Assembly (NCBI GenBank): GCA_009829735.1
Contig: CM020618.1
Span: 40,291,030-40,355,029, forward strand
Direction: 5' to 3'
Length of the DNA stretch: 64,000 nt
Source: Pyropia yezoensis
Taxonomy: Eukaryota; Rhodophyta; Bangiophyceae; Bangiales; Bangiaceae
A model generated the notes under the pieces. The model did no database searches. It had not been told where the DNA came from and worked only from the letters and a program-made list of their open reading frames with translations. Numbering within the stretch: position 1 is the first letter of the stretch; each line of letters opens with the position of its first letter. A program made the translations under genes and the position numbers. This document shows, piece by piece, positions 31,022-61,592 of this stretch.

Positions 31022-31384
31022 TGTAGCACAATAGGTATCCGCTGCACGTCCACTCTCAGGGAACACTCACCAAGGGGGATCGGCACCAACGTCACCGGGA
31101 GGCCAAGGTTGCTGTCCTTGGAGCGCAAGCCACGGGACCAAGATGGGAGCCCAAATGGGAGGAGTTCGTTGTTCTTCCTTGGCCGGCGGTGGATTCGCCG
31201 CCGGCCCCCTCGTTATAAACCCTCGGAGACACTACTAACTACCCTCCACCCCAAGATGCAAGTCCCTCTGGTCATACGTAACTTATAGATACCGTGACCA
31301 GTACGGACTCTCAAATTGAAAGTTAAGGGCAAGAAGTAGCCCCCTCTAATATAGGGTCACAATACGGTCAACCATATTGCTACA
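31022..31384 (-). repeat. 5' LTR of element A (363 bp)
   Basis: On the minus strand it begins TGTAGCAATATGG and ends ATTGTGCTACA, with the 6-bp terminal inverted repeat TGTAGC/GCTACA. It is the same length as, and closely similar to, the LTRs of element C. Mid-LTR GGGTTTATAACG is a possible TATA element. Its 3' partner is not in the window. Confidence 0.85.
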
Positions 31385-35057: not shown

Positions 35058-35630
35058 TGTAGCATCCCTGGCCCCGACTTGGCGCCGACCCGGGACTGCA
35101 ACCAGAGGGCACCAGGTGCCAGAACACGCCCGCCGTGTGGCGATGGTTGGCGGCCGTGGCCCGTGCCCGGCACTGGGATGCGGTGGACTACGCTATCCAC
35201 ACGCGAGAGAGGGATTTCTGATGTGTTTTTGCATATTTGTGAGGGACTTGATTTGAGAGAATTTGAGTGTGAGATTAGTGAGTGGGAATAGAATTAGTAG
35301 TGATAGTGGCCCCCGACCTGACGAGGTTAGACTCGGGTCGGGGCCACTCGGGGTTATGGGGGGGGCTACCGGGCCAACGTGCCGGGGTTCCCCCAGATGC
35401 ACGTTAAGAGGGACAGCGAGGCGCCCTCGGCCCGCGCCCTCAGGGAAAAAGACAACTGCGCGTTTGCTTTCCTCTTCCCCGTGTGCACTACCGTGCGTAT
35501 CTGTTTGCCCTGCAAGCAGGCACGTGAGGCAACAGGCATACCATTCTCGTAGTTCCCCTTTCTGCGTTACCTGTCCCTTTCCCCCGAGGGATATTGACAC
35601 GTGTCTGAGAGGATCGAGTTTTATACCACA
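35058..35630 (+). repeat. 5' LTR of element B (573 bp)
   Basis: Begins TGTAGCATCCCTGG and ends TTATACCACA. It matches 44136-44708 base for base as far as I can compare by eye. TGT...ACA ends give a short terminal inverted repeat. Confidence 0.93.
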
Positions 35631-41833: not shown

Positions 41834-44143
41834 CTACTCTCGGCGCGGACGCTGAGCCGAGGGAGTGTCCTCCGGCGCTGCCCCCGCGGTACGACGGGAA
41901 CCGGAGGAAGACGGGATGACGTAGTGCGGTGGACGCGGCGCATCCCGGTATGACGCCATCGGAGTAGTACCAGTAGTTGCCGGTGGCTCCCGCTCATCCA
42001 GATATGTCCGTCGGCGCCGCTGGAAGCCCGTGAAGGTCTCTGACCACTGCTGGGCCAAGCCATGCCGCGTCAAAGTCGCCAGAAGTTCGCCAACCACCGG
42101 GTTGTTCGACATCTGACCGCTGTCCGCGCAAGCAAACACCCGGTCGACCACGTCGTTCAAGACACTGGCGTAAGTGCCCAGCACCAGGGAGGACCCGACG
42201 CCTTCAACCTGCACCGGAAGACGACCCAGCTGGTCTTCAATCATGCCGACGTCGTACTGGTCGCATGTTGGACCACCTTGGTTCAGGTACCAGTCAGGCA
42301 CCCGGAAGCGGGTAAGGCGCAGAGTCGGCGCCGGAATCTCGAACCGGCCCGAGGATGACACTACCGGACGGTCCACAACGGCCCCCGAGACCGGAGTGCC
42401 CAACTCCAGCGGAGGCACAGCGCCGCCGGCGTTGGAAGAAGGCGTCCGGGGTAGAGCGGCCGGAGTAATCGGCGACCGCACGGCCACTCCCAGACTCGCC
42501 GCAGACAAGCGCGGTGCCGGAGGAGCTTGAAGTACTGGCACAGCCGGAACAGGGCGCGGACGTGCCGGTGACGGTTCAGGCGAGGCGACCGGGGCGACAG
42601 GGGCAACCGGAGGAAGCGGAGCCGCCGCAGACGCCCGACCGACCGCCGCGGCCCATCCCGACTCCTGCACCGGCGGCCCAACTGGCAGAAGATCAAGGGC
42701 GGCCGGAGCAGGAAAGCTACCTAGCTGCGGCCACGCCGGAAGCGGCGTCGCCAGCTGCACCTTGGCCGGAGAAGACTGGTAGACCACCTGCGCCCAACCG
42801 AAGCCATCCCGACGCGGGCGGTTCTGGTCGGCAATCGCGTTCAAGAAGTTCCGGTCATGCACCGGCACCAGACGCCGGAAGTCGATCATCGCCTGGAAGA
42901 GCTCCTTGTACTCCTCGTCCTGGCTGCACAGGAAGTCGACGGTCAACTTGTCGACAATCCAGACCATCAGGAGGTCAGGGAGAAACCAAAGCCGGTTGGA
43001 CACCAAGACCTCATGAAGCCAGTGGTTGGCCGCCAAGACTGTCATCTCGGACGTGTACATCATGTACGGGATTGAGTGGAAGAAGCCTTTGATCGACACC
43101 TGAGTCAAGGCGTCCAAGAAGTACCAGGTGCAAGGGATGCTGGAAGGAGCAAACCCGACCGGGATCTCGACTTCCTGCTGCTGCGGGATGACCTTGGGGT
43201 AGTATGCCGCCCGGTTAGCCTTGTCCAGCTTCCAGAACTCCTGGTGGTTGCAGCTTACAAGGAAGTCACGCTGACGCCCGCGTCGCTCACCCTGCTCCCG
43301 TGCCGGCGACAACTTGGAGTATTTCCGGGTCAAGAAAGGCGGCTCCAGAGCGACCATGCTCGGACGGGGGTCGCAGTTCAAGCTTCCCGACCCCTTGAGC
43401 GCCTCGTCCCAGACCTTGAGCGCCCGGTGGACGTACCCTTCCTCCTCCGGCCACCGGAGAACGGACGCGGACACGCGACGCTCGGTCAAGGGTAGATCCA
43501 GTACCAGCGCGAAGGGGAGATCCTCCAGACGAGCAACCCAAGAGGAACCCGAGAAGCTCTGGGAGCGGTCTTGTGCCAGGCGCATCTGGTCCGCCGTATG
43601 AAGACGTGCCTTGTCCATCTCGGTCAAGACCCCGCGCTGGAGTTCCTTGCGCCAGAGGTCCATGCAATCCTGCTGGCACTGGGCCGCGCCGGCGTTGCCG
43701 ACCACCGTGGAGTAACGCCGGGCCGCCAGAGGGTCCTGCCCAAGAAGCATCTCCGGGAGACCCTCCGGGGGGGCCTCGACCGGGTGCATCGCGGAAGCCG
43801 GGGGAACTCGATCCGTCCCCGCCGTGGCGACCGGCGCCGGCACCGACATCCGAGGAACCGGAGGCAGGAGAGGGGCACGACGACCCGAGTTCTCCTCCGC
43901 AACACTCGCCGCCGGAACCACGGGCCCAGCTTGGATCTCGGAACTGGACATACCGTCCAGACTCCGGGGAACGAGAGGGCCAAGGTGAAGGAGCGGAGGG
44001 GGGGGGGCAGAATCGGGGCAGGTGATCGTGACCGGGTGAAGACGCTCGACCTCGGCACCGGTGTGGACGTGCTCGAGGCTGTGCACGGTGGCACCTGGTT
44101 CGGCCCGAGGACGTGCCGGACTAGGGAGGGAGCTATGTAGCAT
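41834..44143 (-). CDS. Convergent antisense ORF of element B, unknown function
   Basis: This 769-residue ORF lies opposite to pol, 145 bp past the pol stop. The ATG used (44143-44141) lies in the first bases of the 3' LTR; an internal ATG at 43951 would give 705 residues, and the frame extends into the LTR to a GTG at 44278. The first ~200 residues are Pro/Ala/Ser-rich. The middle is a well-mixed, probably folded region: PVGFAPSSIPCTWYFLDAL, EMTVLAANHWLHEVLVSN, then RLWFLPDLLMVWIVDKLTVD (LWFLP at ~385). A Pro/Ala-rich linker and a C-terminal segment (LATLTRHGLAQQWSETF) follow. There is no env-like signal/TM arrangement and no catalytic motif I know. The LWFLP region has counterparts in the antisense ORFs of C (LFHLP) and D (LWHLP). 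Confidence 0.7.
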   Translation of the reverse strand: MLHSSLPSPARPRAEPGATVHSLEHVHTGAEVERLHPVTITCPDSAPPPPLLHLGPLVPRSLDGMSSSEIQAGPVVPAASVAEENSGRRAPLLPPVPRMSVPAPVATAGTDRVPPASAMHPVEAPPEGLPEMLLGQDPLAARRYSTVVGNAGAAQCQQDCMDLWRKELQRGVLTEMDKARLHTADQMRLAQDRSQSFSGSSWVARLEDLPFALVLDLPLTERRVSASVLRWPEEEGYVHRALKVWDEALKGSGSLNCDPRPSMVALEPPFLTRKYSKLSPAREQGERRGRQRDFLVSCNHQEFWKLDKANRAAYYPKVIPQQQEVEIPVGFAPSSIPCTWYFLDALTQVSIKGFFHSIPYMMYTSEMTVLAANHWLHEVLVSNRLWFLPDLLMVWIVDKLTVDFLCSQDEEYKELFQAMIDFRRLVPVHDRNFLNAIADQNRPRRDGFGWAQVVYQSSPAKVQLATPLPAWPQLGSFPAPAALDLLPVGPPVQESGWAAAVGRASAAAPLPPVAPVAPVASPEPSPARPRPVPAVPVLQAPPAPRLSAASLGVAVRSPITPAALPRTPSSNAGGAVPPLELGTPVSGAVVDRPVVSSSGRFEIPAPTLRLTRFRVPDWYLNQGGPTCDQYDVGMIEDQLGRLPVQVEGVGSSLVLGTYASVLNDVVDRVFACADSGQMSNNPVVGELLATLTRHGLAQQWSETFTGFQRRRRTYLDEREPPATTGTTPMASYRDAPRPPHYVIPSSSGSRRTAGAAPEDTPSAQRPRRE

Positions 44144-44708
44144 CCCTGGCCCCGACTTGGCGCCGACCCGGGACTGCAACCAGAGGGCACCAGGTGCCAG
44201 AACACGCCCGCCGTGTGGCGATGGTTGGCGGCCGTGGCCCGTGCCCGGCACTGGGATGCGGTGGACTACGCTATCCACACGCGAGAGAGGGATTTCTGAT
44301 GTGTTTTTGCATATTTGTGAGGGACTTGATTTGAGAGAATTTGAGTGTGAGATTAGTGAGTGGGAATAGAATTAGTAGTGATAGTGGCCCCCGACCTGAC
44401 GAGGTTAGACTCGGGTCGGGGCCACTCGGGGTTATGGGGGGGGCTACCGGGCCAACGTGCCGGGGTTCCCCCAGATGCACGTTAAGAGGGACAGCGAGGC
44501 GCCCTCGGCCCGCGCCCTCAGGGAAAAAGACAACTGCGCGTTTGCTTTCCTCTTCCCCGTGTGCACTACCGTGCGTATCTGTTTGCCCTGCAAGCAGGCA
44601 CGTGAGGCAACAGGCATACCATTCTCGTAGTTCCCCTTTCTGCGTTACCTGTCCCTTTCCCCCGAGGGATATTGACACGTGTCTGAGAGGATCGAGTTTT
44701 ATACCACA
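44136..44708 (+). repeat. 3' LTR of element B (573 bp)
   Basis: Matches the 5' LTR along its full length. It is preceded by a purine-rich AGGGAGGGAGCTA and followed by the target duplication CACCT. Its first bases, read on the minus strand, supply the first ATG of the antisense ORF. Confidence 0.93.
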
Positions 44709-46758
44709 CACCTGCCACAACTGTGTGTGGCGCGGCCCACATATCCGCACAGACACACACGGGTAGAAATGTCGGATGGTAAACGATGCCAGTGTATCGT
44801 TATTGCTCAGTGAACACAAGTGATCCAAGTACGCGTCAAGCATTCAAGTACTCACGTTGCACTCCACGTGGCATGAAATGTGTACGACGATCAATTACTA
44901 CGTGTTCCGACGGTATCTAAGACAGGGAACCAGGGCGGGTCCGTGTTATGTACATAACGACACGAGTGCGTGTTGGTCCTCCAGGTCGCTCTTTGCGGCC
45001 ACACTCGTTATGTACAAAACACAACCACATAGACCTTTCTTCATTTAACCACAAAGAAACGCGTTCCGCATCATGCGCCATCGTTATCGACTGCACAAAT
45101 GGGCACGACCGTCCGTATTTTTGTCTGTATGTCGACTCCGCAGGCTGCTTCTGCCCACCATCTTCTCCTGCCACTCCTCCCGGTTGCACCTGGGGTGCGG
45201 CAGCTCGCCTCTGCCGACTACCAGCACGCGTGCAGGTACTGGCACACTTTGGACTCTTAGATGGCTCTTTAATGGCTCCTCGAGTGGTCGACCCTTGAAA
45301 ACGAGCCCCCCCCCCCCCCCCCCCGTTACCCGGCATCTAACGATGAACCTGACGCCGAGAGTTGTTATATGGAGACTTCTTTTGCACGGCGGAAGGACAT
45401 GGATGAGGTGATGGAGAGAGGGGTGGTCCATCTGAAAGAGCTTCTAAGTCGCTCTTGTTAGCTTCCGCGAGCCCAAGACCGCCGCTACCGACCGCCGCAG
45501 GCATCCCCGCATTGACCACTGCCACCAGCCGCCACAGCTGGCCTCCACCACCGGCCCCTGTCGCCGGCCACGAAAGCGGCCCCCTGCAGCGGCCCACCAC
45601 CACAGTGCACCACCGCCGGCCCCTGCAGCCAGCCACCGTTGTGTACAATCGCCACAAGCCACCACCACCGGCGAACGCCGCCAGATACCCCCGCCGGCCA
45701 CCGCTGCTCGCCACGGCGGCCGGCCACTGCCGCACGCCGCCCAAGTCGGCCGCCGCCGCACGCCACTCCTGCAGACCGCTCCCGTCGGCAATCGCCGCGG
45801 GCAAGCCCCTCCGGCCGCCCCTGCCGGTGATCGCCGCAGGCAATAGGCACAGGTAAGCCCCTCCGGCCGTCCCCGCCGGCCATCCCCACCGGCCGTCCCC
45901 GCCGGCCATACCGCGCGGGCCATACCCCGCCTGAACGACGGCAGAACACACCTTTTCTTACATCTTCTGGTACGCACCGTCGCTGTGCGTCTTGGCTTTC
46001 CCTCATAAAAAATGGTGGGAAGGCGACATCTGTAGGCAATTGACACGCCTCATAGAAGAAGACAATAAACAGTCGGCCCGTACGGTGGTGCGGAGGGGAG
46101 TTCAGGGGGCCACGTGACAAGTCGCGGAGAGGCGTAGCGGCTGAAAAACAGGCTTGGCGAGGATCCCGGTTCAAGGATCACTACGCGGGCGGCACACGCC
46201 GTGTGCCCCACAGCGCAGTGGCCACAAAGCATTCGGCGAGGGGATAGGGCGCAGTTTGAGAGTGTGCCACCCTCTCTTGACGCAATCACGAATGTGGTCA
46301 AGCACGCCTTTCAACCCTGTGTTTGAGTGAGGTCTGTCCTGTCGGCCCAGCACAAGAAACACGGGACGTGCTTGGGCCTGGGCATGGCATCACCGGCTCC
46401 AAATCTATTGTACAGTCATTGTCCATTCTTGTCCCTTCCTTTGCTATCACCGGGTGATAGTATCCAAAGTAGGTCGACCGACCGTCGGGACCAGATGCAG
46501 CGATCGATCGCAACGAGAACTTAGAAACGAGTTACTGGCTATGTAGATCAATTTACTATCGCTCGATATGCCAGCCAGCGGCTGGCATGTGACGCAGGGC
46601 ACCCACCGTCGTCGCACTCACCCACGCCGCGCCCACCGTCGTCGCACCCATCCTCGTCGCGCCTACCGTCGTCGCTCACACGGCTGTTTCCCCCACCGAC
46701 CCCGACGAGCCCCCGCCCCCCCCGCCTTCTTCCTCGGTCGGCACTGTGCGTCCCCACA
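44709..46758. other. Intergenic region between element B and the pogo transposase gene
   Basis: Near 44,945-45,015 two copies of GTTATGTACA-type sequence border CGAGTG motifs. A 19-base C run lies at 45306-45324. From 45,470 to 45,900 there is GCCGCC-rich DNA with degenerate CCACCG/GCCGGCC repeats and open frames of Gly/Ala/Arg bias. Just before the transposase ATG, CACCGTCGTCGCACCC-like units recur four times (46,603-46,675). No gene is supported. Confidence 0.35.
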
Positions 46759-48798: not shown

Positions 48799-48894
48799 AC
48801 AAAACGTGCCGCCATAACACCTTTTGTGGAAAACAAATAAAAATGAAGCGGCGGCGCTGGCAACGATGGGTGATGGAAAGGACGAAAAGGGGCG

Positions 48895-50767
48895 ACGCGC
48901 AGACCACAACAGTGGTGCAAGAGGGCGGGGCGAGGCGCCAGACAATGGTTGGTAGGGTGGGGGGGCGACGCCCATACCGCTACAGTGGTGCAGGTGGGCG
49001 GGGAGAGGCGCTAGATAATGGTTGGAAGGGTGCGGGGGCAACGCCCAGACCGCCGTGTTGGTGCTGGTGGGCGGGGCGACGCGCAAGATAATTGTTGGGA
49101 GGTCGGGGGGCGACGCCCAGACCGCTACAGTTGTTCTGGTGGGTAAGGCGACGCGCCATACATTGGTTGCGAGGGATGGGGGCGACGCCCACACAGCCGT
49201 TGTAGCGGACATGGGCGGGGCGACGCGCCAGATAATGGTTGGGAGGGTGCGGGGGCGACGCCCAGACCACCGTGGTAGAGTTGGTGGGCGGGGCCACACG
49301 CCAAATACTGGTTGGGAGGGATGGCGACGACGCCCACACCGCCGTTGTAGCGGTGGTGGGTGGGACAACGCGCCAAAAAATGGTTGGGAGGGTGCGGGAA
49401 CGACGCCCAGACAGCCGTGTTCGTGCTGATGGGCGGGGTGACAGGCCAAATAGTGCTGGGGAGGGAGGGGGACAACGCCCGGACCGCCGTGGTAGTACTA
49501 GTGGGCGCGGCGACACGCAAAATTGTGGTTTGGATGGAGGGGGGCAACGCCCAGACCGCCGTGGTAGCACTGGTGGGCGGGGCGACACGCCATACATTGG
49601 TTTCGACGGATGGGGGCGACGCCCACACCGCCGTTGTAGCGGACGTGGGCGGGGCGACGCGCCAGATAATGGTTGGGAGGGAGGGGTACAACGCCCAGAC
49701 CGCCGTGGTAGCACTGGTGGGCGGGGCCACACGCCAAATACTGGTTGGGAGGAATGGCAACGACGCCCACACCGCCGTTGTAGCGGTGGTGGGTGGGACA
49801 ACGCGCCAAAAAATGGTTGGGAGGGTGCGGGAACGACGCCCAGACAGCCGTGTTCGTGCTGGTGGGCGGGGCGACAGGCCAAATAATGGTTGCGAGGAGG
49901 GGGGACAACGCCCAGGCAGCCATGGCAGTACTTGAGGGAGGTGCGACACGCCAAATTGTGGTTTGGATGGAGGGGGGCAACGCCCAGACCGCCGTGGTAG
50001 TACTGGTGGGCGGGGCGACACGCCAAAAATAGGTTGGGAGGGATGGGGGCGACGCCCACTCCGCCGTTGTAGCGGTGGCGGGCGGGACGACGCGCCAAAT
50101 AATGGTTTGGAGGGAGGGGGACAACGCCCAGACCGCCGTGGTAGTATTGGTGGGCAGGGCGACACGCCAAAAACTGGTTGGGAGGGAGCGGGGCAACGCC
50201 CAGACTGCCGTGGTCGTGCTTGTAGGCGGGGAGACACGCCAAATTTTGGATGGGAGGGAGTGGAGCGAAGCCCAGACCGCCGTCGTAGTGCTTCTGGACG
50301 GGGCGACGCCCAAATACTGGTTGTGAGGGAGGGGGGCGACACCCAGACAGCCGTGGTAGTGCTTGTGGAAGGTGCGACACGCCAAAAAATGATTGCGAGA
50401 GAGGGGGACAACGCCCAGACCGCCGTGGTAGTATTGGTGGGCCGGGCGACAGGCCAAATAATGGTTGGGAGGAAGGGGGACAACGCCCAGACCGCCGTGG
50501 TAGAACTGTCGGGCGGGGCGACACGCCAAATATTGGTTGGGACGGAGGGGGGCAACGCCCAGACCGCCGTGGTAGTGCTTGTCGGCGGGGCGACACGCCA
50601 GATAATTGTTGGGAGGGATGGAAGCGAAGCCCTGACCGCCGTGGTATTGCTGGTGGACAGGGCGACGCGCCAGATATTGGTTGGGAGGGAGGGGGGCGAC
50701 ACCCAGACAGCCGTGGTAGTACTTGTGCGCGGCGCGACACGCCAAACAATGGTTCGGAGGGAGGGGT
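48895..50767. repeat. 72-bp minisatellite array, left part (about 26 copies)
   Basis: The unit resembles GGGAGGGAGGGGGGCAACGC followed by CCAGACCGCCGTGGTAGTGC, then TGGTGGGCGGGGCGACACGC and CAAATAATGGTT. Copies differ by substitutions and a few indels. 72 bp equals 24 codons, so long ORFs (425-589 codons minus; 191-269 plus) appear in several frames with 24-residue repeats (NAQTAVVVLVGGATRQIMVG on plus; RRSGRCPPPSQPLFGVSPRP on minus). The array is interrupted by element C and resumes at 61,593. Confidence 0.85.
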
Positions 50768-51130
50768 TGTAGCAATATGGTTGTCCGTATTGTGACCCTA
50801 ATATGAGGGGGGCTACTTCTAACCCTTAACTTTCAATTTGATAGTTCGTACTGGTCACGGTATCTATAAGTTACGTATGACCAGAGGGACTTGCATCTTG
50901 GGGTGGAGGGTAGTTAGTAGTGTCTCCGAGGGTTTATAACGAGGGGGCCGGTGGCGAATCCACCGCCGGCCAAGGTAGAACAACAAACCCCTCCCATTTG
51001 GGCTCCCATCTTGGTCCCGTGGCTTGCGCTCCAAGGACAGCAACCTTGGCCTCCCGGTGACGTTGGTGCCGATCCCCCTTGGTGAGTGTTCCCTGAGAGT
51101 GGACGCGCGACGGATCCCTATTGTGCTACA
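50768..51130 (+). repeat. 5' LTR of element C (363 bp)
   Basis: Begins TGTAGCAATATGG and ends ATTGTGCTACA, a perfect 6-bp terminal inverted repeat (TGTAGC/GCTACA). GGGTTTATAACG around 50,930 is a possible TATA element. It differs from the 3' copy at one base. Confidence 0.95.
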
Positions 51131-51131
51131 T

Positions 51132-51149
51132 TGGTGGAGCAGCAGGGGA
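51132..51149 (+). other. Primer binding site of element C
   Basis: TGGTGGAGCAGCAGGGGA, one base after the 5' LTR. The 18 bases map onto tRNA structure as CCA + discriminator A + 7-bp acceptor strand + 5-bp T-stem + 2 bases, the length of a classical PBS. It is not the TGGTATCAGAGC initiator-Met site usual in plant gypsy elements. Confidence 0.75.
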
Positions 51150-51354
51150 CGGGTTTCCGTCACCCTGGTGGTGACGCCGTCTTCGGCCCTGGCACACGGA
51201 TAGGGATCCGGTCCTTTTCTTGTACTCGTGGTGTTGCGACCTGATCGATTGTGTTGAGTTTTTACCTTTGACTGTGATCTACTGTACTCTCCCCAATCTA
51301 CCCCCTCGCTCTCTTGTTCGTGGTGATTGATACGTCGGTTGACTGATTGTGACC

Positions 51355-53538
51355 ATGTCTACCCAAGAGACGGGGAACGTTCAAGATGACGGATCGGCGT
51401 CGACGCCGACCCCGGAGGTGACTACGGGAACCGGGATCGGGAACCCGATCGATAACATTGAGACGCCAATGCTTTCCGGTGCCGGATCGACGTTTGGCAC
51501 GGCTCGGACGGCAGGAGGCGGGGGCCCGCCTCAACTGTCGTCGACCGACCTCACTCCGCCGCCTCCTTCACCAGGGGATTCCCTGATGGCATCATTGGCC
51601 CGCATCGAGGCCCGGTTTTCCGGGCTCGACGCCCGTCAAGATCGGACGGAGGACGCAATGGCAGTGTTGATGTCAACACGGCACACGACGGGACCCCGTC
51701 GTGTTCCTCCCACACCGGTACGGTTCGAACCGGCCGGACTACTTTCGGAGTCCACCAGGGTCAACCCCGGTGTTGCTACTCCTGGACAACCCCCGGACAC
51801 AATGGGGTATGGGTCCGACTCGTCGGCAGAGTTGGAACGGAGTCACACGGAGCGATACGCTCGGAGCACCCGAAGCGGACTCCGCGGACACGACCCGGCG
51901 GATACGTACGCCGGGGGAGAGTCGGTTATTGGGGGAGGAGGTACCCTCTCGCAGTACCCCCACGACGAAGGAGGCCAAGCAACTCGGGTTCCCGAGGTGC
52001 CGACGCCTGAAGTACCATCTTCAGTGGTGGAAGCTATGACCGCGCAGGTAACTGCGAGCCTACTGAAGCGGATGGAGTCCGATGAGTTCGCTCATCAACT
52101 GGCTAAGCGACTGGATATCCAGGACGCTGACACGGAGATCGTCAACGAGGTCTTCCGGTCGGTTCTTACTCCGGAACGTTATCGTTTGGAGGACCGCTCT
52201 ACCACCGTATCGGAATCGATGCGTAATACGTCGCATCGGGCGATCCGCTCTATGCAGACCCTTATGAAGGGAGTCCCTATGTTCGGGGGGCCGAACGGAC
52301 GTCCGTTGGCAGTCATCGGCTTCTTGACTAGCTTCAAGGCAGCCGCAGACAAGGCGCTCGTTAACGAGGGGCTGGCTCTGGAGATCCTTCCGTTCTTTGT
52401 TGATGAACGGGTGCGAGGCATCCTCCGCCAGGCATCCCCGATGCCGGGAATGAGGGTCGCGGCCACCCCCATGGATTACCGTGGGATATTGAAGGAGCTG
52501 CTGAGCAGCTACCTCAGTGAGGACAAATGCGAGGACCACTATCGGGCCCTTCGCACTGCCACCGCCCAGTCCTGGGAGGATGAGGAGATGTTTGGACGCC
52601 GGATCCAAGAGCTCGACTACGAGCTGGGGAAGCTCCTCGGAGAAGGGGAGCTACGGGCCATCCTGTTCGCAGGAGTACCCAACTACGTGCGGATATCCGC
52701 ACGGGGCGCCAACACGGCACGGACGAACTTCAGTCGACTGATGCATATGTGCAAGTCCCTAGGGGACGCCTACCGGGTTCTACACCCGGAGTGTGCCTTG
52801 GCCCCGAAGCCCAAGGGTGAGGGAGGCAAGCCCAGTCTTACCCCGGTACCGAGGCAAGAGAAGGTGGAACGTAAGGCCGCACCAGTACTGGTGGCGACCG
52901 AACATACCCCTATTGGTGAGGATGACCCTCTAGTCGACCAACAGGGCCACCTATTGCTACCGGCGACGCCGGTGATTGATGAACATGGTACGGTAGCGTA
53001 CATCGCCCCGGCTGGAACCCAGTTCCAGGTCAACGAAGGCACGGGACGGCGCGTCCCGTATGTGCGGACTACGGGGTACTCCCCGGTGACGGGTAACCCT
53101 CACCAACCCTTGCCAACATGGGCGGTGCGCACGGAGGCACCTCCGCAGATTGCGGGCCGACCCAACCGGTTGGGGGAATCCATGTTCCGGTTGACCCAAG
53201 GACCCAAGGCCTACCAGGGAGCAGGCACTCGGGCGCCCGAGGGAGGCAACCGTAGCTACGGGGCTACCCCGATGCGACCTCAAGGGGGGACCGGCACGTC
53301 CGGGTGTATGTTGTGTGGGGATCCCCAGCACTGGGTGTCTTCCTGCCCACTCATCCCCGAGGAGTCTCGGCGGGCAGCGGCGCAACGCAAGGCATCCACC
53401 GGGGGGTATCCCGCCCGAGCACCCGGACCCGCACCGGGTAGGCAGCCAGCTCCAGGTGGAGTACTGGCCGTCGAGGGGGCACCTCCTCAGCCGGAGGTCC
53501 CGGCGGACAGCACCCTACCAAGGGCGGGAAACGAGTAA
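51355..53538 (+). CDS. gag: Gag polyprotein of element C
   Basis: This is a 727-residue Gag from ATG 51355 (the frame opens six bases earlier at a GTG). The N-terminal ~220 residues are Gly/Pro/Thr-rich and disordered, apart from a helical stretch (SLMASLARIEARFSGLDAR). The capsid-like core spans ~225-480: EAMTAQVTASLLKRMESDEF, FLTSFKAAADKALVNEGLAL, the DYELGKLLGEGELRAILFAG helix, and RTNFSRLMHMCKSLGDAY. A CCHC zinc knuckle CMLCGDPQHWVSSC begins at residue 651. The terminal tail is Pro/Gly-rich. The stop TAA (53536) follows GAG, with the slippery heptamer just before it. Element A's gag is the same protein with stops. Confidence 0.9.
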   Translation: MSTQETGNVQDDGSASTPTPEVTTGTGIGNPIDNIETPMLSGAGSTFGTARTAGGGGPPQLSSTDLTPPPPSPGDSLMASLARIEARFSGLDARQDRTEDAMAVLMSTRHTTGPRRVPPTPVRFEPAGLLSESTRVNPGVATPGQPPDTMGYGSDSSAELERSHTERYARSTRSGLRGHDPADTYAGGESVIGGGGTLSQYPHDEGGQATRVPEVPTPEVPSSVVEAMTAQVTASLLKRMESDEFAHQLAKRLDIQDADTEIVNEVFRSVLTPERYRLEDRSTTVSESMRNTSHRAIRSMQTLMKGVPMFGGPNGRPLAVIGFLTSFKAAADKALVNEGLALEILPFFVDERVRGILRQASPMPGMRVAATPMDYRGILKELLSSYLSEDKCEDHYRALRTATAQSWEDEEMFGRRIQELDYELGKLLGEGELRAILFAGVPNYVRISARGANTARTNFSRLMHMCKSLGDAYRVLHPECALAPKPKGEGGKPSLTPVPRQEKVERKAAPVLVATEHTPIGEDDPLVDQQGHLLLPATPVIDEHGTVAYIAPAGTQFQVNEGTGRRVPYVRTTGYSPVTGNPHQPLPTWAVRTEAPPQIAGRPNRLGESMFRLTQGPKAYQGAGTRAPEGGNRSYGATPMRPQGGTGTSGCMLCGDPQHWVSSCPLIPEESRRAAAQRKASTGGYPARAPGPAPGRQPAPGGVLAVEGAPPQPEVPADSTLPRAGNE
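53526..53532 (+). promoter_or_regulatory. -1 ribosomal frameshift site GGGAAAC (element C)
   Basis: In gag phase it is G GGA AAC, then GAG TAA. The -1 frame is open directly into pol. An ATG in pol frame occurs at 53547, eight bases after the gag stop, so reinitiation is a competing explanation here. TGACC...GGTCA starting at 53548 could form a small stem about 15 nt downstream. Confidence 0.65.
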
Positions 53539-56500
53539 GAGGAAGGATGACCGGGGGGCGCTGGGGTCACCCAAGCAAGCCACCCCGGAGTACCGCGGGG
53601 AAAGCCCCACGGAGAGCGCGGTTGAGCCGACGCCGCATCAACCCCCGGGTACACCTTCCGGCCCCGACGACACGGCGTCAGGGGATTGATGACCAACCTC
53701 CAAGGTTGGGAGGAGAGGACGGGAAGCCCCGTCACGTTGAACCAGACAAGGGCCCTGTTCAGGATGCCCGAGCTACACCGGATATCGGTGTAGGACATGT
53801 GTTGTTTACCTTGGAGAACTTCAAGGTATCAGCCACCCTGGGGGTTGACCCCCAGTCGACACGATCGTACTACCCTGTACTGGACACAGGGGCTGGACCC
53901 AACCTTATCCGGAAGGATACCCTCCCGGACAAGTGGCTTCCACGAGTCAGAGTGACCCGGGGACCCACCATCAAGGACGCGAATGGTCGACTCATTCGTA
54001 CGACCGCAGCGATGTCGCTGCAGGTTACCATCGGGGATCTCACCACGGAAGTTGACTTCCTGGTATGTGAAACGCTATCGGTGCCCTGCATACTGGGGTG
54101 CACCTTCATCAACGTTCACGTTGATGCAATCCGGCCAGGCCGGAGGACCGTCGAGCTTCAAGAAGCCGACGGGACGAAGCGAGGACACACGGCTATCGTC
54201 AGGGACCTGACGCTACAAGGAAGCCACGTTAACGTGGCTGAGGTGTACGCAAGCGTCGAGCCGAAGACACTTCGGTTGGCCAAGCGAACTCGCTTTGAGC
54301 CGTTGTCAGAGACAGTCCTCCCGGTTAACTGCGACCTCGCAGGCATCTGCAGAGTCCAGTCCAACCTACGGACGTACAAGCGCCATGGGTTGACCATGGC
54401 CAACGGTCTCATAGACCTCCCAGCAGGAGGGTCGTCCCTCCTAGTGATGGCGAACTACCGCCGTAAGGCAGTCACCCTCCCGAAGGGAACTATCCTCGGG
54501 ATTGCCGAACTCTACGAAGGAGATATCCTTACCCCTGATAAGGAAGGTCAAGTGGAACCACTTGAAGTACTGGCGGTCGCCGAGACCACCGAGCGACAGC
54601 AACCCGATGACGGGAAGCCTAACCCATCGGCGGCTCCGGCGGACCTGCCGCCAAAGGACCAAGAGGCCTTGAAGGCACTGGCCGAGGCTGACCTCGACCA
54701 CCTTCCCCCTTCGGTAGCCGAAGGGGTACGACGGATGCTAAGAAAGCATGACGTTATGTGGACAGGCGGGGCCTTGGGGACCATTGGGGCAACCCAACAT
54801 CGTATAGACCTGGTACCAGGCGCACGACCCGCCCGCTCACAACCGCACCGAGCGGGACCTATGCAACGAGAGATCGTTGATGGAGAAGTGAAGAGGATGA
54901 GTGAAGCTAAGGTGATCCGACCTTCGATGTCGGAATGGGGTGCCCCAGTCGTTATTGTGCCGAAGAAGGATCAAACCCCTCGGTTTTGCATCGATTATCG
55001 ACGCCTCAACTTGGTTACCAAGAAGGACTCATACCCTTTACCAAGGATGGATGAATGCATCGACTCCCTGGGGGAGGCTACGGTGTTTACCACCATCGAC
55101 TGCAATGCCGGATACTGGCAGATCCCGGTGGCGGACGAGGATATCCCCAAGACGGCATTCGTCTGTCACAGTGGAGTGTACGAGTTCCTAAGGATGCCCT
55201 TCGGATTGTCCAACGCCCCCGCTACATTCCAGCGGGCTATCGACATCATACTGTCTGGGGTGAAGTGGCGTAACTGCCTAGTGTACCTCGATGACGTCAT
55301 CGTCTTCTCACGTAACATGGATGACCATGTACAACATGTTGACGAGGTACTCACCCTCTTGAGGAACGCCGGGGTAACCCTGCGTCTGAAGAAGTGCGCC
55401 TTCTTCCAACAGACGGTCGAATATCTGGGCCACCAGATAACCCCTGGTAAACTAGGGGTACTCGAAGCCAATACCCGGGCACTCCGGGATGCCCGGTTCC
55501 CTAACACCCAGACGCAGCTCAAGAGCTTCCTGGGAATGTGCAATGTATACCGACGGTTCGTCAAGGACTTCGCTCGGATAGCTAAACCGTTAACGGTTCT
55601 TACGAGCAGTACCTTACCCAAGGTACTCCAACCCCCTTCGCCTAGCGAAGAGGAGGCATTCGAGTCGCTGAAGCGAGCCCTACTAGCCCCACCCGTCCTT
55701 GCGTCACCGCATAGACGGGGTACCTTCGTCATCGATGTCGATGCGTGTGATACACAAGTGGGATGCACCCTGTTACAGGGAGAGACGTTGATCGGTACCG
55801 ATAACGTTATCCCGGACCTACGTCCGGTAGGGTACTTCAGCCGGACACTCAACCCGGCTGAGCGGAACTATAGTGCCACCGAGCGTGAATGCCTCGGAGT
55901 TATATGGGCAGTGCAACTGCTCCGTCCATACCTGGAGGGCTCCAGGTTCATCGTGAGGTCCGACCACGAACCCCTACGATGGCTCCTCAACCTTGGTGAC
56001 AAGGATTCCGATAGCCATGGGAGGCTAGCCCGATGGAGGCTGAAGATGGCCGAGCACGACTACCGCACGGTGTATAAGGCTGGGTCAACCCACCACCTCG
56101 GAGACGCGTTGTCTCGACTCGACACACCGAGCGGGGATACCCGCCCGGTGGACGAGGACATCCCGGTAGTACCGGTGTGCATGGTGGGTAATGCTACCCA
56201 GGGTATGGCTGACCATACCATGGCACACCTTGCGTGCCCATTGACCCTCGCGGACTTCCGCGAGGCACAGGCCAACGACGATGACTGTAGACGTCATCGT
56301 GCTAACCTCCTGGCCGGTACGGCCGGCATCTTCTCCGAGAACGAAGACGGACTCATATACCGGCGGGCACCCGCCGATGGACGACATCAAGTCGTGGTTC
56401 CCGTGTCCTTACGGCAAGCCGTCATGGAACGAGAACATGAGAACCCTACAGCCGGACACCCGGGAGGTTCACGTATGTTCGCAGCAATGCGAAGGTTCTT

Positions 56501-57713
56501 CTACTGGCCAGCAATGGCCGTCGACGTGGTCGACCACGTACGGGGATGCCACCCCTGTGCACGTAACCGCATGAGTCTACATAGGCAGGCGTCTGCCATG
56601 AAGCTATTCCCACCTGATGGGCCCAACGAGCAAGTCGCTATCGACATACTCGGGCCACTTCCGATAACGGAAGAAGGGAACAGGTACATCCTGGTCATGT
56701 CTGACCGCTTCACTAAGCTGTCAAGAGCGGCAGCCATCCCGAATGATACGGCATACACGATCATGAACGCAGTGGTTGACCACTGGATCAGTGCATACGG
56801 AGTCATGAAGCAACTCCTCTCCGATAACGGAGCAAACCTTACGTCGGCATTCTGCACGAAGGTCCTGGGCATGTTCGGTATCGAACCACGTCGGGCATCC
56901 GACTACCACCCGCAGTCCAACGGGCAGGTGGAGCGGTTCAACCGCACCATCGTAAAGATGCTACAGTGCTACGTGGCCGAGCACACGAACACTTGGGACA
57001 GGCTTCTGTCCGTACTCACCCTGGCATACAATGCCAGGCCACATCGGAGCACAAACATTGCTCCGCTGGAGTGGGTCATGCCACTAGGCGTCGGTAACCT
57101 GACGCTGCCACCCGGCAGGTGCACTCGGTATGATACACCGAAGGGCCGACCCGCCGAACGCATCCACCTAGCTTGGTTGGCCAAGCTATCGTGGATGATT
57201 CCTAAGCTCAAGGGTGCCCTTGACAGAACACAACTTCGGTATAAGAAGAACTTCGACGCCCGACTACGGGTGCGCAACGCAACCCTGGTAACAGGTGACT
57301 GGGTCTATATCAGACACCAGAAGTTCCGAGGGAACAAGCTTATGCAACCGGTCAAGGGACCGTACCAGATCCTCCACAGAGATGACCACTCTGTTATCTT
57401 ACACTCCGATGCGGAGATCCAACGCATCAGTATGAATGATGTCACACCTGCTCCGAAGCCGGAACAGCCTCAGCCGGTACCGGCTGGGTTGCTACATGAA
57501 GCTCTTACAACCCACCGGTCGGATGACCCGGTGGGACCGGATGGGATTCCATACCAAGTAGAGAGCGTGGTCGGACACACCGACCCGGACATACCAGGAC
57601 CCTGGTACGTCAAGGTTATGTGGGTCGGATACGACTCACCCACCTGGGAACAGGCGGCGAATATACCCCGCCAACTCCTCATGCCATACATGAGGCGACG
57701 ACGCCTACTGTAG
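53526..57713 (+). CDS. pol: Pol polyprotein of element C with chromodomain
   Basis: Residues are counted from the in-frame ATG at 53547 (1,388 residues). Protease LDTGAGPNLI (Asp113). Reverse transcriptase with YRRLNLVTKKDSYPLPRMDE, MPFGLSNAPATFQRA and YLDDVIVFSRN (YLDD 580-583). RNase H with DVDACDTQVGC (Asp732). Integrase with an HHCC finger (AGHPGGSRMFAAM... CHPCARN) and DDE core Asp1033, Asp1093, Glu1129 (35 residues between the last two). A C-terminal chromodomain spans ~1336-1376 (YQVESVVGHTDPDIPGPWYV, MWVGYDSPTWEQAANI), ending MRRRRLL. All catalytic residues are present, so the enzyme set looks functional. Expected product is a Gag-Pol fusion processed by its own protease; cDNA is integrated in the nucleus. 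Confidence 0.94.
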   Translation, partial: GKRVRGRMTGGRWGHPSKPPRSTAGKAPRRARLSRRRINPRVHLPAPTTRRQGIDDQPPRLGGEDGKPRHVEPDKGPVQDARATPDIGVGHVLFTLENFKVSATLGVDPQSTRSYYPVLDTGAGPNLIRKDTLPDKWLPRVRVTRGPTIKDANGRLIRTTAAMSLQVTIGDLTTEVDFLVCETLSVPCILGCTFINVHVDAIRPGRRTVELQEADGTKRGHTAIVRDLTLQGSHVNVAEVYASVEPKTLRLAKRTRFEPLSETVLPVNCDLAGICRVQSNLRTYKRHGLTMANGLIDLPAGGSSLLVMANYRRKAVTLPKGTILGIAELYEGDILTPDKEGQVEPLEVLAVAETTERQQPDDGKPNPSAAPADLPPKDQEALKALAEADLDHLPPSVAEGVRRMLRKHDVMWTGGALGTIGATQHRIDLVPGARPARSQPHRAGPMQREIVDGEVKRMSEAKVIRPSMSEWGAPVVIVPKKDQTPRFCIDYRRLNLVTKKDSYPLPRMDECIDSLGEATVFTTIDCNAGYWQIPVADEDIPKTAFVCHSGVYEFLRMPFGLSNAPATFQRAIDIILSGVKWRNCLVYLDDVIVFSRNMDDHVQHVDEVLTLLRNAGVTLRLKKCAFFQQTVEYLGHQITPGKLGVLEANTRALRDARFPNTQTQLKSFLGMCNVYRRFVKDFARIAKPLTVLTSSTLPKVLQPPSPSEEEAFESLKRALLAPPVLASPHRRGTFVIDVDACDTQVGCTLLQGETLIGTDNVIPDLRPVGYFSRTLNPAERNYSATERECLGVIWAVQLLRPYLEGSRFIVRSDHEPLRWLLNLGDKDSDSHGRLARWRLKMAEHDYRTVYKAGSTHHLGDALSRLDTPSGDTRPVDEDIPVVPVCMVGNATQGMADHTMAHLACPLTLADFREAQANDDDCRRHRANLLAGTAGIFSENEDGLIYRRAPADGRHQVVVPVSLRQAVMEREHENPTAGHPGGSRMFAAMRRFFYWPAMAVDVVDHVRGCHPCARNRMSLHRQASAMKLFPPDGPNEQVAIDILGPLPITEEGNRYILVMSDRFTKLSRAAAIPNDTAYTIMNAVVDHWISAYGVMKQLLSDNGANLTSAFCTKVLGMFGIEPRRASDYHPQSNGQVERFNRTIVKMLQCYVAEHTNTWDRLLSVLTLAYNARPHRSTNIAPLEWVMPLGVGNLTLPPGRCTRYDTPKGRPAERIHLAWLAKLSWMIPKLKGALDRTQLRYKKNFDARLRVRNATLVTGDWVYIRHQKFRGNKLMQPVKGPYQILHRDDHSVILHSDAEIQRISMNDVTPAPKPEQPQPVPAGLLHEALTTHRSDDPVGPDGIPYQVESVVGHTDPDIPGPWYVKVMWVGYDSPTWEQAANIPRQLLMPYMRRRRLL

Positions 57714-57791
57714 CAACCCAACCGACACCGACTTCGGCTGTTGGGGGGTGAGGCTTATACCTACTAAGTAGGGTGTGACATGGTTATGGCA

Positions 57792-57879
57792 GACTTAGGT
57801 TTCTAAGTCAAATCAGACTTAGGTTTCTAAGTCGAACCAAGCTTAGGTAACTAAGTAGAGCTAAGCTTAGGTAACTAAG
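57792..57879. other. Cluster of four short hairpins between pol and antisense ORF (element C)
   Basis: Two copies of GACTTAG-GTTT-CTAAGTC (57792-57809, 57816-57833) and two of CTTAG-GTAA-CTAAG (57842-57855, 57866-57879). All stems are perfect. They lie 79-166 bp after the pol stop and some 300 bp from the antisense ORF stop. Possible roles are bidirectional transcript end formation or RNA structure; this is inference. Confidence 0.6.
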
Positions 57880-58194
57880 TAAAAACCTGAACCTTAATAA
57901 GTTAACTTAAAGGTAAAGGCTAACTCCGATAATATCGAAGTAACTAGGGAGCTTACACGGGAGGATGACCTCCCCAAGCCAAGACACAAAGTGAGGGAGG
58001 ATAACCTCCCCAAGCATGAACCAACCGGAAGAAGTTGGGCGGGAGGCAAGGCACCACTGAGCCAGAAGGGGTACTCCCCAGGGCAGCAAACAGAGGCAAG
58101 CAATGCCCCCAGCGGGGGATGAGTTTATACTCACTACTACCCGGCTACCATAAGAGTTGCCGGGGCCCTCTCCCTCACAAACAAATAGCACTCC

Positions 58195-60642
58195 TCAGTG
58201 GGTAGACCCACTGCCCGAGGGAGGCCACTCACGCGTAAGCGCGTATACCTCCGTGCTCCACCGGTCGGCAATGTCACGATGGTCGACCACCCGAGTTACC
58301 TCGGTGCATAGCTGGACGAGGGTGCTGCGGCCAGCCTCCACGTCCTCCAGAGCTTTCTGGAGGCGGTCCAGCACGCCACCGAAGCAACGCGCTGACCCAA
58401 CCAGCGCAGCACCTGGGGGGATATCCCCCCAGCTAACAGAGAGACCCCCACGCATGGCGCGGGTAACAAGGGCGTCAACGCCCTCATACCAGAGACGGGG
58501 ACCCCCGTCATGTAGGACAGGGGCGGGAGGTGATACTGGCGCAGCCAGAGGAGCCATAGGAGCCGACACGGCTACCACCGGAGCCGGTGGCACCTGATAC
58601 GAGGCCCGGTAGGACCCTACCGAAGGGGCTCCACCGTAACCACGGCGGTACTCCGCCCGACGACGGGACACCTCACGCTCCCCACCCACAGAGCCCCACT
58701 CTCGGGGACGACGGCCAACCGCCGCCGGCATCGGGTTACCGAACCACGGAGCAAGGACCTGAAGAGGGTCATGGATAACCATGGGAATACCCAGGTCAGG
58801 AACGGCCTCGGTGGACGCCCACCCATGGCAACTAGGCTCACCCGGCTGAGTACGCCGGACTCGCAACGAGTGACGAGGCAAGGGGGAAGCCCCAGCCTGC
58901 GGGTCCCGGTACGGGGGAAGGGCCAACACCCCAGCCCAGTTCACGGCATCGTGAACAGCCAGCAGGGCTTCGAACTCCCGGGCCAACCCGGTCTTGGCAG
59001 CTATCAGATCCACGCCCAACTGCGCGATGTGCCGACGGACACCCATCGGAAGATGAAACAGACGACCCTGCCGGCGGACGGACAGCAAGAAGGATGAAGC
59101 CTGCCCGAGGGTAACCTCAAGGGTGAAGGTACCCTGCAACGGGTGGACCGGCCGGGAGGCCAACACACTCCCGAAGTAGCGAAGGCAGGAGCCGGTGTCA
59201 AACCGGAAAGCAGGGGCGGGTTCCCACCCCTCCTGCCATAGCGGCGGGCGTACGGGAGTATATACCGGAGCACGACCGTTGCCGGTCTGCAACGCACACG
59301 TTATATCCGTGCGGAACGCATCCGCCATGACACCATGGTTACGTCGCCAACTCGACGCCGACTTCAACCCCGCCATGGGCGGGTAGGGAGCCGTCAACGA
59401 CAGATACGGGGGTACCCCCGGGTAGTAGTCAAAGTCGGGATACCGACCGGTACGGCTCACCGTCTCCCCAAACGCAACCGGCTCCGCCACCGCCGCAATC
59501 CCCCGAGCACTAGCCGGGTAGTCAATCTCCCGCGGCAACGCGGGGGCAATCAAGTCGCAGACCCCGAAGTTGGGGTCGAGGTAGACCTCACCCCGTCCCA
59601 CCCGGGTGCGCCAGAGCTGCGCATGCCGGTCGTCCGGCTGACTCAGGATCCAATGGTGTTCCACCCGGACCGCGTTCGGCTGGTTGACCAGCCGCACCAA
59701 CTCCCGCTCCCAGCACGGGTCCACCTTGACGCGCCGGGAGGATTCTCCACGGGGATGCACCAGGTGGAAGTCCACCCGCATACGCCCATCGGACTCCATC
59801 GACTCTTGCACCGTGAGGCCTCGAACCCGAGCCACCAAGTCGGACACCGACATGGCGGGTTGACCCGCCGCCACGGCGACGCCGCCACCCAACGGGGCAA
59901 CCCGGGCAGGACCAGGAAGAATCGGGGGCGCCGGGGGACGCACCACCGGCAGAGGGGCCGACGTCGGAGATGGACGAGGCCGAGGAGGAAGAAGAAGGGC
60001 GGGCGCCCGCCCGGAGTAACTCCCGGTGTCAACCGCCATGGGAGAAGGAGCGTCTTGACCGCTCGACGCCCGCGGCACCGCAGGTACGGCGCCGGCGCCG
60101 GCACCACCCGTCGGCGTAGCCCCCGCCTCGGAAGTGGAAGGCACTGGGACAGCCTCCGGAGCCGGAGCCCCGGCCGTGCGGACACCCGCACCGTCTTGAC
60201 CCACCGCACCGGGTGTCGCACCGCCACCACCACCCGCGTCAACGTCGGGACCACCTCGAGGAGTCACCGCCCGGACACCCGGACCACCTTGACCAGCCGG
60301 AGTCGGCTGCGGGTCGCCACCTCCGCCGCAGGGCGGACCATCTTGAGGTAGCTGCGGTGAGCCGGCACCGGCACCAGGCCCCATCCGGGCAGCCGGCAGA
60401 GAGGGGGTAGAAGCCGCCACGCGCGGTTGACCGCCGGGTTGACCTCCGGCCGATGGCACCGTCGTGCCGCTGCACACGGACGACAGTCCTCCGGCCGACA
60501 GACGGACGGACACCGCAGGCCCGTCGTCGTCAGACGAGCTCACCCCGTAACGCGCGGCGTCGGGACCGACAGGCGCGTCGTCCTCCATCTCCTCCCCGAT
60601 CAGGAGGTCTTCCTCCTCTTCAAGCACCTGGGGATAGGACAT
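58195..60642 (-). CDS. Convergent antisense ORF of element C, unknown function
   Basis: This is an 815-residue protein from the ATG at 60642; the frame is open further to a GTG at 60924. The N-terminus is acidic (VLEEEEDLLIGEEMEDDAPV), then Pro/Gly/Ala-rich to ~250. A folded-looking region follows: SVSDLVARVRGLTVQESMES, FHLVHPRGESSRRVKVDPCW, VYLDPNFGVCDLIAPALP, FDTGSCLRYFGSVL (YFGSVL ~489), and GRLFHLPMGVRRHIAQLGVD (LFHLP ~528-532), then LAREFEALLAVHDAVNW. The C-terminal ~200 residues are conserved with the fragment in element A (VSWGDIPPGAALVG, EVEAGRSTLV). No signal peptide, TM pair or known enzyme motif was seen. Extra ORFs downstream of pol, some antisense, are known in plant Ty3/gypsy elements; whether this one is related is unknown. 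Confidence 0.72.
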   Translation of the reverse strand: MSYPQVLEEEEDLLIGEEMEDDAPVGPDAARYGVSSSDDDGPAVSVRLSAGGLSSVCSGTTVPSAGGQPGGQPRVAASTPSLPAARMGPGAGAGSPQLPQDGPPCGGGGDPQPTPAGQGGPGVRAVTPRGGPDVDAGGGGGATPGAVGQDGAGVRTAGAPAPEAVPVPSTSEAGATPTGGAGAGAVPAVPRASSGQDAPSPMAVDTGSYSGRAPALLLPPRPRPSPTSAPLPVVRPPAPPILPGPARVAPLGGGVAVAAGQPAMSVSDLVARVRGLTVQESMESDGRMRVDFHLVHPRGESSRRVKVDPCWERELVRLVNQPNAVRVEHHWILSQPDDRHAQLWRTRVGRGEVYLDPNFGVCDLIAPALPREIDYPASARGIAAVAEPVAFGETVSRTGRYPDFDYYPGVPPYLSLTAPYPPMAGLKSASSWRRNHGVMADAFRTDITCALQTGNGRAPVYTPVRPPLWQEGWEPAPAFRFDTGSCLRYFGSVLASRPVHPLQGTFTLEVTLGQASSFLLSVRRQGRLFHLPMGVRRHIAQLGVDLIAAKTGLAREFEALLAVHDAVNWAGVLALPPYRDPQAGASPLPRHSLRVRRTQPGEPSCHGWASTEAVPDLGIPMVIHDPLQVLAPWFGNPMPAAVGRRPREWGSVGGEREVSRRRAEYRRGYGGAPSVGSYRASYQVPPAPVVAVSAPMAPLAAPVSPPAPVLHDGGPRLWYEGVDALVTRAMRGGLSVSWGDIPPGAALVGSARCFGGVLDRLQKALEDVEAGRSTLVQLCTEVTRVVDHRDIADRWSTEVYALTREWPPSGSGSTH

Positions 60643-61229: not shown

Positions 61230-61592
61230 TGTAGCAATATGGTTGTCCGTATTGTGACCCTAATATCAGGGGGGCTACTTCTAACCCTTAACTTTCAATT
61301 TGATAGTTCGTACTGGTCACGGTATCTATAAGTTACGTATGACCAGAGGGACTTGCATCTTGGGGTGGAGGGTAGTTAGTAGTGTCTCCGAGGGTTTATA
61401 ACGAGGGGGCCGGTGGCGAATCCACCGCCGGCCAAGGTAGAACAACAAACCCCTCCCATTTGGGCTCCCATCTTGGTCCCGTGGCTTGCGCTCCAAGGAC
61501 AGCAACCTTGGCCTCCCGGTGACGTTGGTGCCGATCCCCCTTGGTGAGTGTTCCCTGAGAGTGGACGCGCGACGGATCCCTATTGTGCTACA
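61230..61592 (+). repeat. 3' LTR of element C (363 bp)
   Basis: Same ends and length as the 5' LTR with one substitution. It is preceded by the polypurine tract CTAAGGGGGGGA and followed by the GGGGT target duplication and resumed minisatellite. Confidence 0.95.

What the first reader, a model, noticed from the sequence alone, without database searches (positions are those of the whole stretch)
41834..60642. A shared, unassigned antisense ORF in four LTR retrotransposons
Elements B and C each carry an intact ORF of 770-815 residues on the strand opposite pol, between pol and the 3' LTR. Element A has a decayed piece and the left-edge element D has another. By eye the B, C and D proteins share a domain: an aromatic pair (YFGSVL in C and D, WYFLDAL in B), then 39-44 residues later LFHLP / LWHLP / LWFLP. 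B and C/A belong to clearly different pol lineages, so retention of an antisense gene implies selection. Known families: plant Ty3/gypsy elements can carry extra ORFs, including antisense ones, but I recognise no match to this domain.
Basis: partly seen in the sequence, partly recalled or inferred. Interest (0 to 1): 0.85.

Follow-up and report, generated by a model that had tools for sequence, protein, structure and literature searches.

The report
Conserved antisense gene in seaweed retrotransposons
Jumping genes of a nori-type red seaweed carry an extra, so far unassigned protein gene written backwards relative to their other genes, and the core of that protein appears to be protected by evolution much like their replication enzyme, so it probably helps them spread.

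Summary
Confirmed and extended. The window, from a Bangiales-like red alga, holds three young Ty3/gypsy-type LTR elements (B, C, D; LTR mismatches 0, 1, 0; 5-bp target duplications) and a decayed one, A. Pol proteins of B, C and D are 40-44% identical. Each element carries a long ORF on the opposite strand, convergent with pol, before the 3' LTR. D is complete: its gag and pol lie just left of the window. The antisense proteins form one remote family: C-D and D/E-B profile matches beat every shuffle; direct B-C does not. No significant Pfam or PDB match; relatives in Pyropia vietnamensis. The genome holds at least 55 (B), 50 (C) and 105 (D, part query) match rows, mostly without stops. Of 38 loci found by this gene, 37 have pol opposite and convergent. 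dN/dS in the core is 0.14-0.23; pol is 0.12 in the one pair where both were measured. So this is a constrained protein gene. The architecture is known (plant Retand, Grande, RIRE2; fungal Boty); the protein family and red-algal setting look new. Function is inferred: a regulatory or anti-silencing factor. Expression was not tested.

The parts
35058..35630 (+). Element B 5' LTR (573 bp); target duplication CACCT at 35053-35057 and 44709-44713
   Evidence: identical to 44136-44708
35840..37600 (+). Element B gag (weak CCHC match)
   Evidence: zf-CCHC E 0.018, under cut-off; 28% to C gag over 252 aa, E 1e-20
37729..41688 (+). Element B pol (PR-RT-RH-IN, C-terminal chromodomain-like)
   Evidence: Chromo E 4.8e-4, under Pfam cut-off
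41834..44143 (-). Element B antisense gene, 769 aa from first ATG (open to 44278)
44136..44708 (+). Element B 3' LTR; minus-strand TATAAA at 44698-44703
50768..51130 (+). Element C 5' LTR (363 bp); target duplication GGGGT at 50763-50767 and 61593-61597
51349..53538 (+). Element C gag
53547..57713 (+). Element C pol
   Evidence: 43% to B pol
58195..60642 (-). Element C antisense gene, 815 aa from first ATG (open to 60924)
61230..61592 (+). Element C 3' LTR; minus-strand TATAAA at 61395-61400
1..1521 (-). Element D antisense gene from first ATG; continues left of the window to a stop at L039:9604 (whole open frame 846 codons from 2145)
2526..3064 (+). Element D 3' LTR (539 bp, identical to L039 2828-3366); target duplication ATCAT
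   Evidence: gag and pol in L039 3669-5447 and 5486-9475
31022..31384 (-). Element A 5' LTR (minus-strand element, relative of C)
24445..30802 (-). Element A gag and pol, broken into several ORFs
23414..23989 (+). Element A antisense remnant: last 192 codons, one stop

Best explanation
Shown: the antisense ORFs are multi-copy protein genes of one remote family, carried by at least three distinct gypsy-type lineages (a fourth, E, in decayed form) of a red alga. In 37 of 38 loci found by this gene, pol lies on the opposite strand and converges with it. The core is under purifying selection which, in the one directly compared pair, is close to that on pol. Inferred: the gene was present in the common ancestor of these lineages and is transcribed from a promoter in or beside the 3' LTR. 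Its product has a conserved aromatic- and Leu-Pro-rich core of about 280 residues, a low-complexity linker and a tail predicted helical, no membrane-strength hydrophobic stretch in the four proteins checked, and no enzyme motif that I recognise. I think it works as an accessory regulatory factor that raises the element's own spread, by acting on its LTR or RNA or by countering host silencing, as has been proposed for plant antisense genes.
For: Frame statistics. dN/dS of core 0.14 and 0.23, 0.15 and 0.18 in pooled young copies; pol 0.12 in the same B-L044 pair. Shared family. Open in young elements with identical or near-identical LTRs. Rows without a stop: B 37 of 55, C 47 of 50, D 87 of 105. 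Arrangement in 37 of 38 loci, and again in E in L040. Pyropia vietnamensis relatives, P0006 about 61% identical to C over residues 401-700. Highest 19-residue mean hydropathy 1.29-1.54 in four proteins. Arg-rich patches after the core in B and C, not found by the same pattern in D. A linear motif (PM.VD...GR..LLLPPRP) recurs in C, P0005, two P. vietnamensis proteins and P0020, only its end in D.
Against: No expression data. Structure models too poor to use (mean pLDDT 36.8 and 27.8), so no fold and no DNA-binding evidence. A minus-strand TATAWA occurs in the B and C LTRs (shuffles with that box and no sense one: 6.1% and 6.8%) but none in D. Parts outside the core are loosely held: B-L044 residues 110-176 1.65 (not significant), C-L040 linker 0.64 (not significant), D young copies N-terminal part 0.81, linker 0.55, tail 0.57 (none significant), A-C tail 0.60. 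18 of 55 B rows carry a stop. The loci were found by the antisense gene, so how many pol-bearing elements lack it is unknown.
Confidence: 0.5

Rival explanations
1. Chance or GC-driven open frame opposite unconstrained sequence.
For: The window is 56-77% GC in 2-kb steps, where long spurious ORFs occur.
Against: 0 of 1000 shuffles reach the observed length in B, C and D; dN/dS 0.14-0.23 in this frame; the other frames hold 8 to 23 stops in C-L040 and the opposite strand 16 to 23 in B-L044.
Confidence: 0.02
2. The antisense transcript acts as RNA (double-stranded RNA, small-RNA source, or interference with pol transcription), and the protein is incidental.
For: Convergent layout; the idea is in print for plants (PMC7264820 section 8).
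Against: Selection is on amino acids, with substitutions concentrated at third codon positions. An RNA role may exist in addition.
Confidence: 0.1
3. A structural or Env-like/particle accessory protein rather than a regulator.
For: Core constraint close to that on pol; env-like genes also sit between pol and 3' LTR (PMC7264820, passages).
Against: No membrane-strength stretch in four proteins; antisense orientation.
Confidence: 0.15
4. Independent captures: B obtained a different gene that merely resembles C/D, or the gene moved between lineages by recombination rather than by descent.
For: Direct B-C profile match is not better than controls (25.5, reversed 25.6, 1 of 60 shuffles as high); C+D with D leading versus B 26.7, 1 of 100.
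Against: D and D+E match B in the register expected from C; same site and orientation; gag and pol are homologous too.
Confidence: 0.15
5. Anti-silencing factor specific to its own element family (works like VANC of plant VANDAL elements; recalled, no call).
For: Conserved core without a recognised enzyme motif, Arg-rich patches in B and C; constraint among copies.
Against: No DNA-binding or methylation evidence; repeats beside the gene are short and differ between B and C.
Confidence: 0.15

Closest known systems
Plant Retand elements with antisense TRP28 (PF04195) ORFs (PMC11963269: passages including abstract, and the Discussion section)
   Same: Antisense ORF between pol and 3' LTR, TRP28 in 97% of clusters of recently active elements; unknown function; tandem repeats frequent in that region (here four 24-nt units at 57790-57885 in C).
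   Different: No PF04195 match in 21 of 21 members; Retand is non-chromovirus, whereas B and D pol end in a weak chromodomain match; host is a red alga.
Maize Grande gene23 and rice RIRE2 antisense ORFs (PMC7264820: passages and sections 5, 7, 8)
   Same: Same place and orientation; gene23 has an upstream promoter and its protein is nuclear.
   Different: Sequence relation not tested: no gene23 or RIRE2 sequence was at hand; no expression data for the red-algal gene.
HTLV HBZ (named in PMC11963269, passages)
   Same: Antisense gene; PMC7264820 places HTLV's antisense promoter in the 3' LTR.
   Different: HBZ is a bZIP protein (recalled); none of the 21 members matches a bZIP family in Pfam.
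Boty of Botrytis cinerea (named in PMC7264820 section 5)
   Same: Non-plant LTR element with an antisense ORF between pol and 3' LTR.
   Different: Sequence not at hand; relation untested.

Membership tests
LTR retrotransposon, Ty3/gypsy order (elements B, C, D) | Paired LTRs, target duplication, PBS, gag, and pol in order PR-RT-RH-IN | tested here: met
   LTRs 573/363/539 bp, 5-bp duplications, TTGGTGGA within 3 bases of the 5' LTR end in all three, Pfam RVT_1, RNaseH, H2C2, rve; protease match weak in D
Chromovirus | C-terminal chromodomain in integrase and RT phylogeny | tested here: inconclusive
   Chromo E 4.8e-4 (B) and 0.0069 (D), both under Pfam's cut-off; none in C; RT tree not made
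aORF-3R (antisense additional ORF between pol and 3' LTR) | ORF opposite gag-pol between pol and 3' LTR, conserved like other element proteins | tested here: met
   B, C, D in the window; 37 of 38 loci; core dN/dS 0.14-0.23
aORF-3R (antisense additional ORF between pol and 3' LTR) | Present in most copies of the element family | not tested
   copies were found by the antisense gene itself, not by pol
TRP28 / Transposase_28 (PF04195) antisense proteins of Retand | Match to PF04195 | tested here: not met
   0 of 21 members at E up to 10, HMMER filters on; a fold comparison was not possible
Env-like accessory ORF | Sense orientation and transmembrane segment | tested here: not met
   antisense; highest 19-residue hydropathy 1.54 in four proteins
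Element-encoded regulator or anti-silencing factor | Expressed, nuclear, alters element transcription or silencing | not testable with these tools
   needs experiments
Nested DNA transposon or recent gene capture | Terminal inverted repeats round the ORF, or a host source gene | tested here: inconclusive
   no inverted pairs flanking the ORF in B or C; no free-standing host gene noticed, but the genome lists are capped to best candidates and the context of most copies was not seen

The most novel reading that the evidence does not exclude
Red-algal gypsy-type elements ancestrally carry an essential antisense gene whose protein recognises its own family's LTR or RNA and protects that copy from silencing. 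That would give selection a handle on each copy, as cis-packaging does for gag-pol, and would explain why the core is nearly as constrained as pol although its mRNA runs opposite to the genomic RNA.
Probability: 0.18. Interest if true: 0.82.

Novelty: new variant of a known kind. Interest (0 to 1): 0.62.

Why it matters
Antisense genes in LTR retrotransposons have been described in flowering plants and a fungus as ORFs of unknown role. Here one protein family spans three pol lineages at 40-44% identity in a red alga, with purifying selection measured on its core. That makes it likely that such genes do something needed for propagation, and gives a young, multi-copy system in which their role can be tested. 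It also suggests that some 'hypothetical proteins' annotated in Pyropia vietnamensis are transposon antisense proteins.

Tried and rejected
Structure prediction of the C and B proteins: too low in confidence; no fold search was run because it would be meaningless. Pfam, PDB, viral contigs and genome contigs gave no relative (57 and 58 used two short peptide patterns of the C family each). Weak Pfam rows among the 21 members (DUF6214 in 2, HTH_IclR in 1, DUF3545 in 1; best E 0.014-0.27) were not pursued. tRNA and Rfam scans of the window: none. Antisense TATA box: in the B and C LTRs, not in D, so not used as evidence. A versus C dN/dS 0.60: weak, reported. The D versus L041 pair, 77-84% identical by protein match, differs by few substitutions plus indels and gave no information. 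In one search, 2 of 7 B copies (L003, L008) were dropped because a short anchor was not found, and the B pol-tail control failed (0 copies). In one search the C LTR slices were cut one or two bases off; the 3 gap columns come from that. One search timed out and was rerun with fewer shuffles. Proteins from ENA, Logan and EukProt came without DNA or organism, so they served for homology only. Papers PMC2774666 and PMC5408684 were opened for passages only and gave nothing on this point.

Full report
Setting. The window lies at G000:C1:40291030-40355029 of a 107,475,971-base assembly in 11 contigs. The named relatives of the antisense proteins are from Pyropia vietnamensis, a Bangiales red alga. 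From recall, the size and the three large contigs fit Pyropia yezoensis; no call names the host. Host-type genes in the window include a 2-hydroxyacid dehydrogenase, an OTU protease, a NOT2/3/5 protein and an MFS transporter.

The elements. B: LTRs 35058-35630 and 44136-44708, 573 bp, no mismatch, duplication CACCT. C: LTRs 50768-51130 and 61230-61592, 363 bp, one mismatch, duplication GGGGT. D: LTRs L039 2828-3366 and window 2526-3064, 539 bp, no mismatch, duplication ATCAT. TTGGTGGA lies within 3 bases of the 5' LTR end in all three, as a primer-binding site. Each has one gag ORF and one pol ORF with RT, RNase H and integrase matches. Pol identities: B-C 43%, B-D 44%, C-D 40%. B and C gag are 28% identical over 252 aa, E 1e-20. 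A is a decayed minus-strand relative of C (91% identical DNA over pol) whose match to C stops at 23413. The near-identical LTRs mark B, C and D as recent insertions.

The antisense ORFs. Each runs opposite to pol; 145 (B), 481 (C) or 128 (D) bases lie between its stop and the pol stop. The first ATG is just inside the 3' LTR in B, about 0.6 kb before it in C and about 1.0 kb before it in D. The longest open stretch exceeds all of 1000 dinucleotide shuffles in each region. Codon usage learned from three host genes and the B and C pol prefers the antisense frame in 4 of 5 segments tested; the C tail is the exception.

Copies in the genome. B: 55 scored matches at 94-100% identity, 37 without a stop. 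C: 50 scored matches at 98-100%, 47 without a stop. D, by a 400-residue query: 105 rows down to 48% identity, short pieces included, 87 without a stop. These are lower bounds, since only the best candidates were scored. Of the 38 loci cut out by the antisense searches (8 B-type, 30 D-type, the window's own B and D included), 37 have pol on the opposite strand and convergent; L005 had only two shorter pol matches, none of 80 residues. Since these loci were found by the antisense gene, the share of elements that lack it is not known. L040 shows a fourth lineage, E, with pol 55-70% and antisense protein 50% identical to D in the same arrangement; its antisense piece has three stops.

One family. 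HHalign scores with shuffled-column controls: C versus D 50.8 (0 of 60), B versus D 30.1 (0 of 60), C versus B 25.5 (1 of 60, reversed 25.6); C+D versus B 35.5 (0 of 100) when C leads the profile, 26.7 (1 of 100) when D leads it; C versus D+E 49.7 (0 of 80), D+E versus B 40.9 (0 of 80), C+D+E versus B 34.8 (0 of 80). The B alignment falls in the same register through C and through D, at the aromatic pair and the L-x-x-LP motif. The link B-C thus rests on D and E. The P. vietnamensis protein P0006 is about 61% identical to C over residues 401-700, and further Logan proteins form additional branches.

Selection. B versus the diverged copy in L044, which is itself decayed (stops in its antisense gene and 3 in pol): core dN/dS 0.14 (332 codons, p 1e-18), linker 0.26, tail domain 0.16, pol of the same pair 0.12 (1313 codons); residues 110-176 (1.65, p 0.44) and 761-814 (0.59, p 0.19) show no constraint. 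C versus the copy in L040: core 0.23 (p 3e-6), whole 0.33 (p 9e-9, 625 codons), linker 0.64 (not significant). Pooled single-base variants: B, 5 of 7 copies used: core 0.15 (p 3e-5), linker 0.16, tail 0.07, residues 110-176 0.79 (not significant); D, 29 copies: core 0.18 (p 3e-4), N-terminal part 0.81, linker 0.55, tail 0.57 (none significant). A versus C over the last 191 codons: 0.60 (p 0.03), against 0.08 for pol and 0.15 for gag. One opposite-strand frame also shows a lowered ratio (0.45 in C, 0.32 in B) because its third positions coincide with those of the real frame, but it holds 19 stops in each.

What the protein looks like. A low-complexity N-terminal part with a short recurring motif, a core of about 280 residues with conserved aromatic and Leu-Pro positions, a Pro/Ala/Gly-rich linker (Arg patches in B and C), and a tail predicted as helices, the only place where 10-residue blocks of the C model average above 80 pLDDT. 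No membrane-strength stretch in the four proteins checked. No significant Pfam or PDB match.

Comparison with what is known. Plant Retand elements carry antisense ORFs between pol and the 3' LTR; 97% of their clusters encode TRP28, which the author thinks probably can bind DNA (PMC11963269: passages and Discussion). Grande, RIRE2, Retand, PvRetro13 and the fungal Boty are listed cases; Grande's gene23 is transcribed from an upstream promoter and its protein is nuclear (PMC7264820: passages and sections 5, 7, 8). The layout here is therefore a known kind. What looks new: the protein family (no PF04195 match in 21 of 21 members), the red-algal setting, the spread over three pol lineages and the measured constraint. 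A 2012 survey found no retrotransposon chromodomains in the red algae it checked, Porphyra yezoensis among them, and said limited data might be the reason (PMC3350952, passages); B and D have weak chromodomain matches. I found no paper on antisense genes in red-algal LTR elements in the listings of ten full-text searches of an open-licence library; most subscription papers are not held there.

Mechanism. Selection on amino acids argues against a purely RNA role. The lack of a membrane-strength stretch and the antisense orientation argue against an Env-like role. I favour a regulatory accessory factor (about 0.5 for the whole statement), with an anti-silencing version as a distinct possibility (about 0.15-0.18) and a particle-associated protein next (0.15). 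No expression, localisation or binding data exist here.

Noticed in passing
48923-50766 and 61592-62410: Element C sits inside a minisatellite of 72-nt units (about 25.6 and 11.3 copies on the two sides), so it inserted into a tandem array.
   Followed up: partly
2668-3426: Element D is inserted (at 3064/3065) into a minus-strand ORF that looks by eye like a Ty1/copia gag (YDLLDGNYRGWSNYAEAYL...); Pfam gave no match.
   Followed up: partly
34114-34325: 78-nt tandem repeat inside a long minus-strand reading frame (33486-34928) with a repeated RRPAGRPKAAEHP-like peptide just upstream of element B; unexplained.
   Followed up: no
57790-57885: Four 24-nt tandem units shortly after the C pol stop, between the convergent genes.
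   Followed up: no
L005: A B-type antisense gene, open over 845 codons, with only two short pol matches beside it: truncated element or a separated copy.
   Followed up: no
L039:5486-9475, residues 1114-1168 of D pol: Weak Pfam match to DUF5954 (E 4e-4, under cut-off) between integrase core and chromodomain-like end.
   Followed up: no
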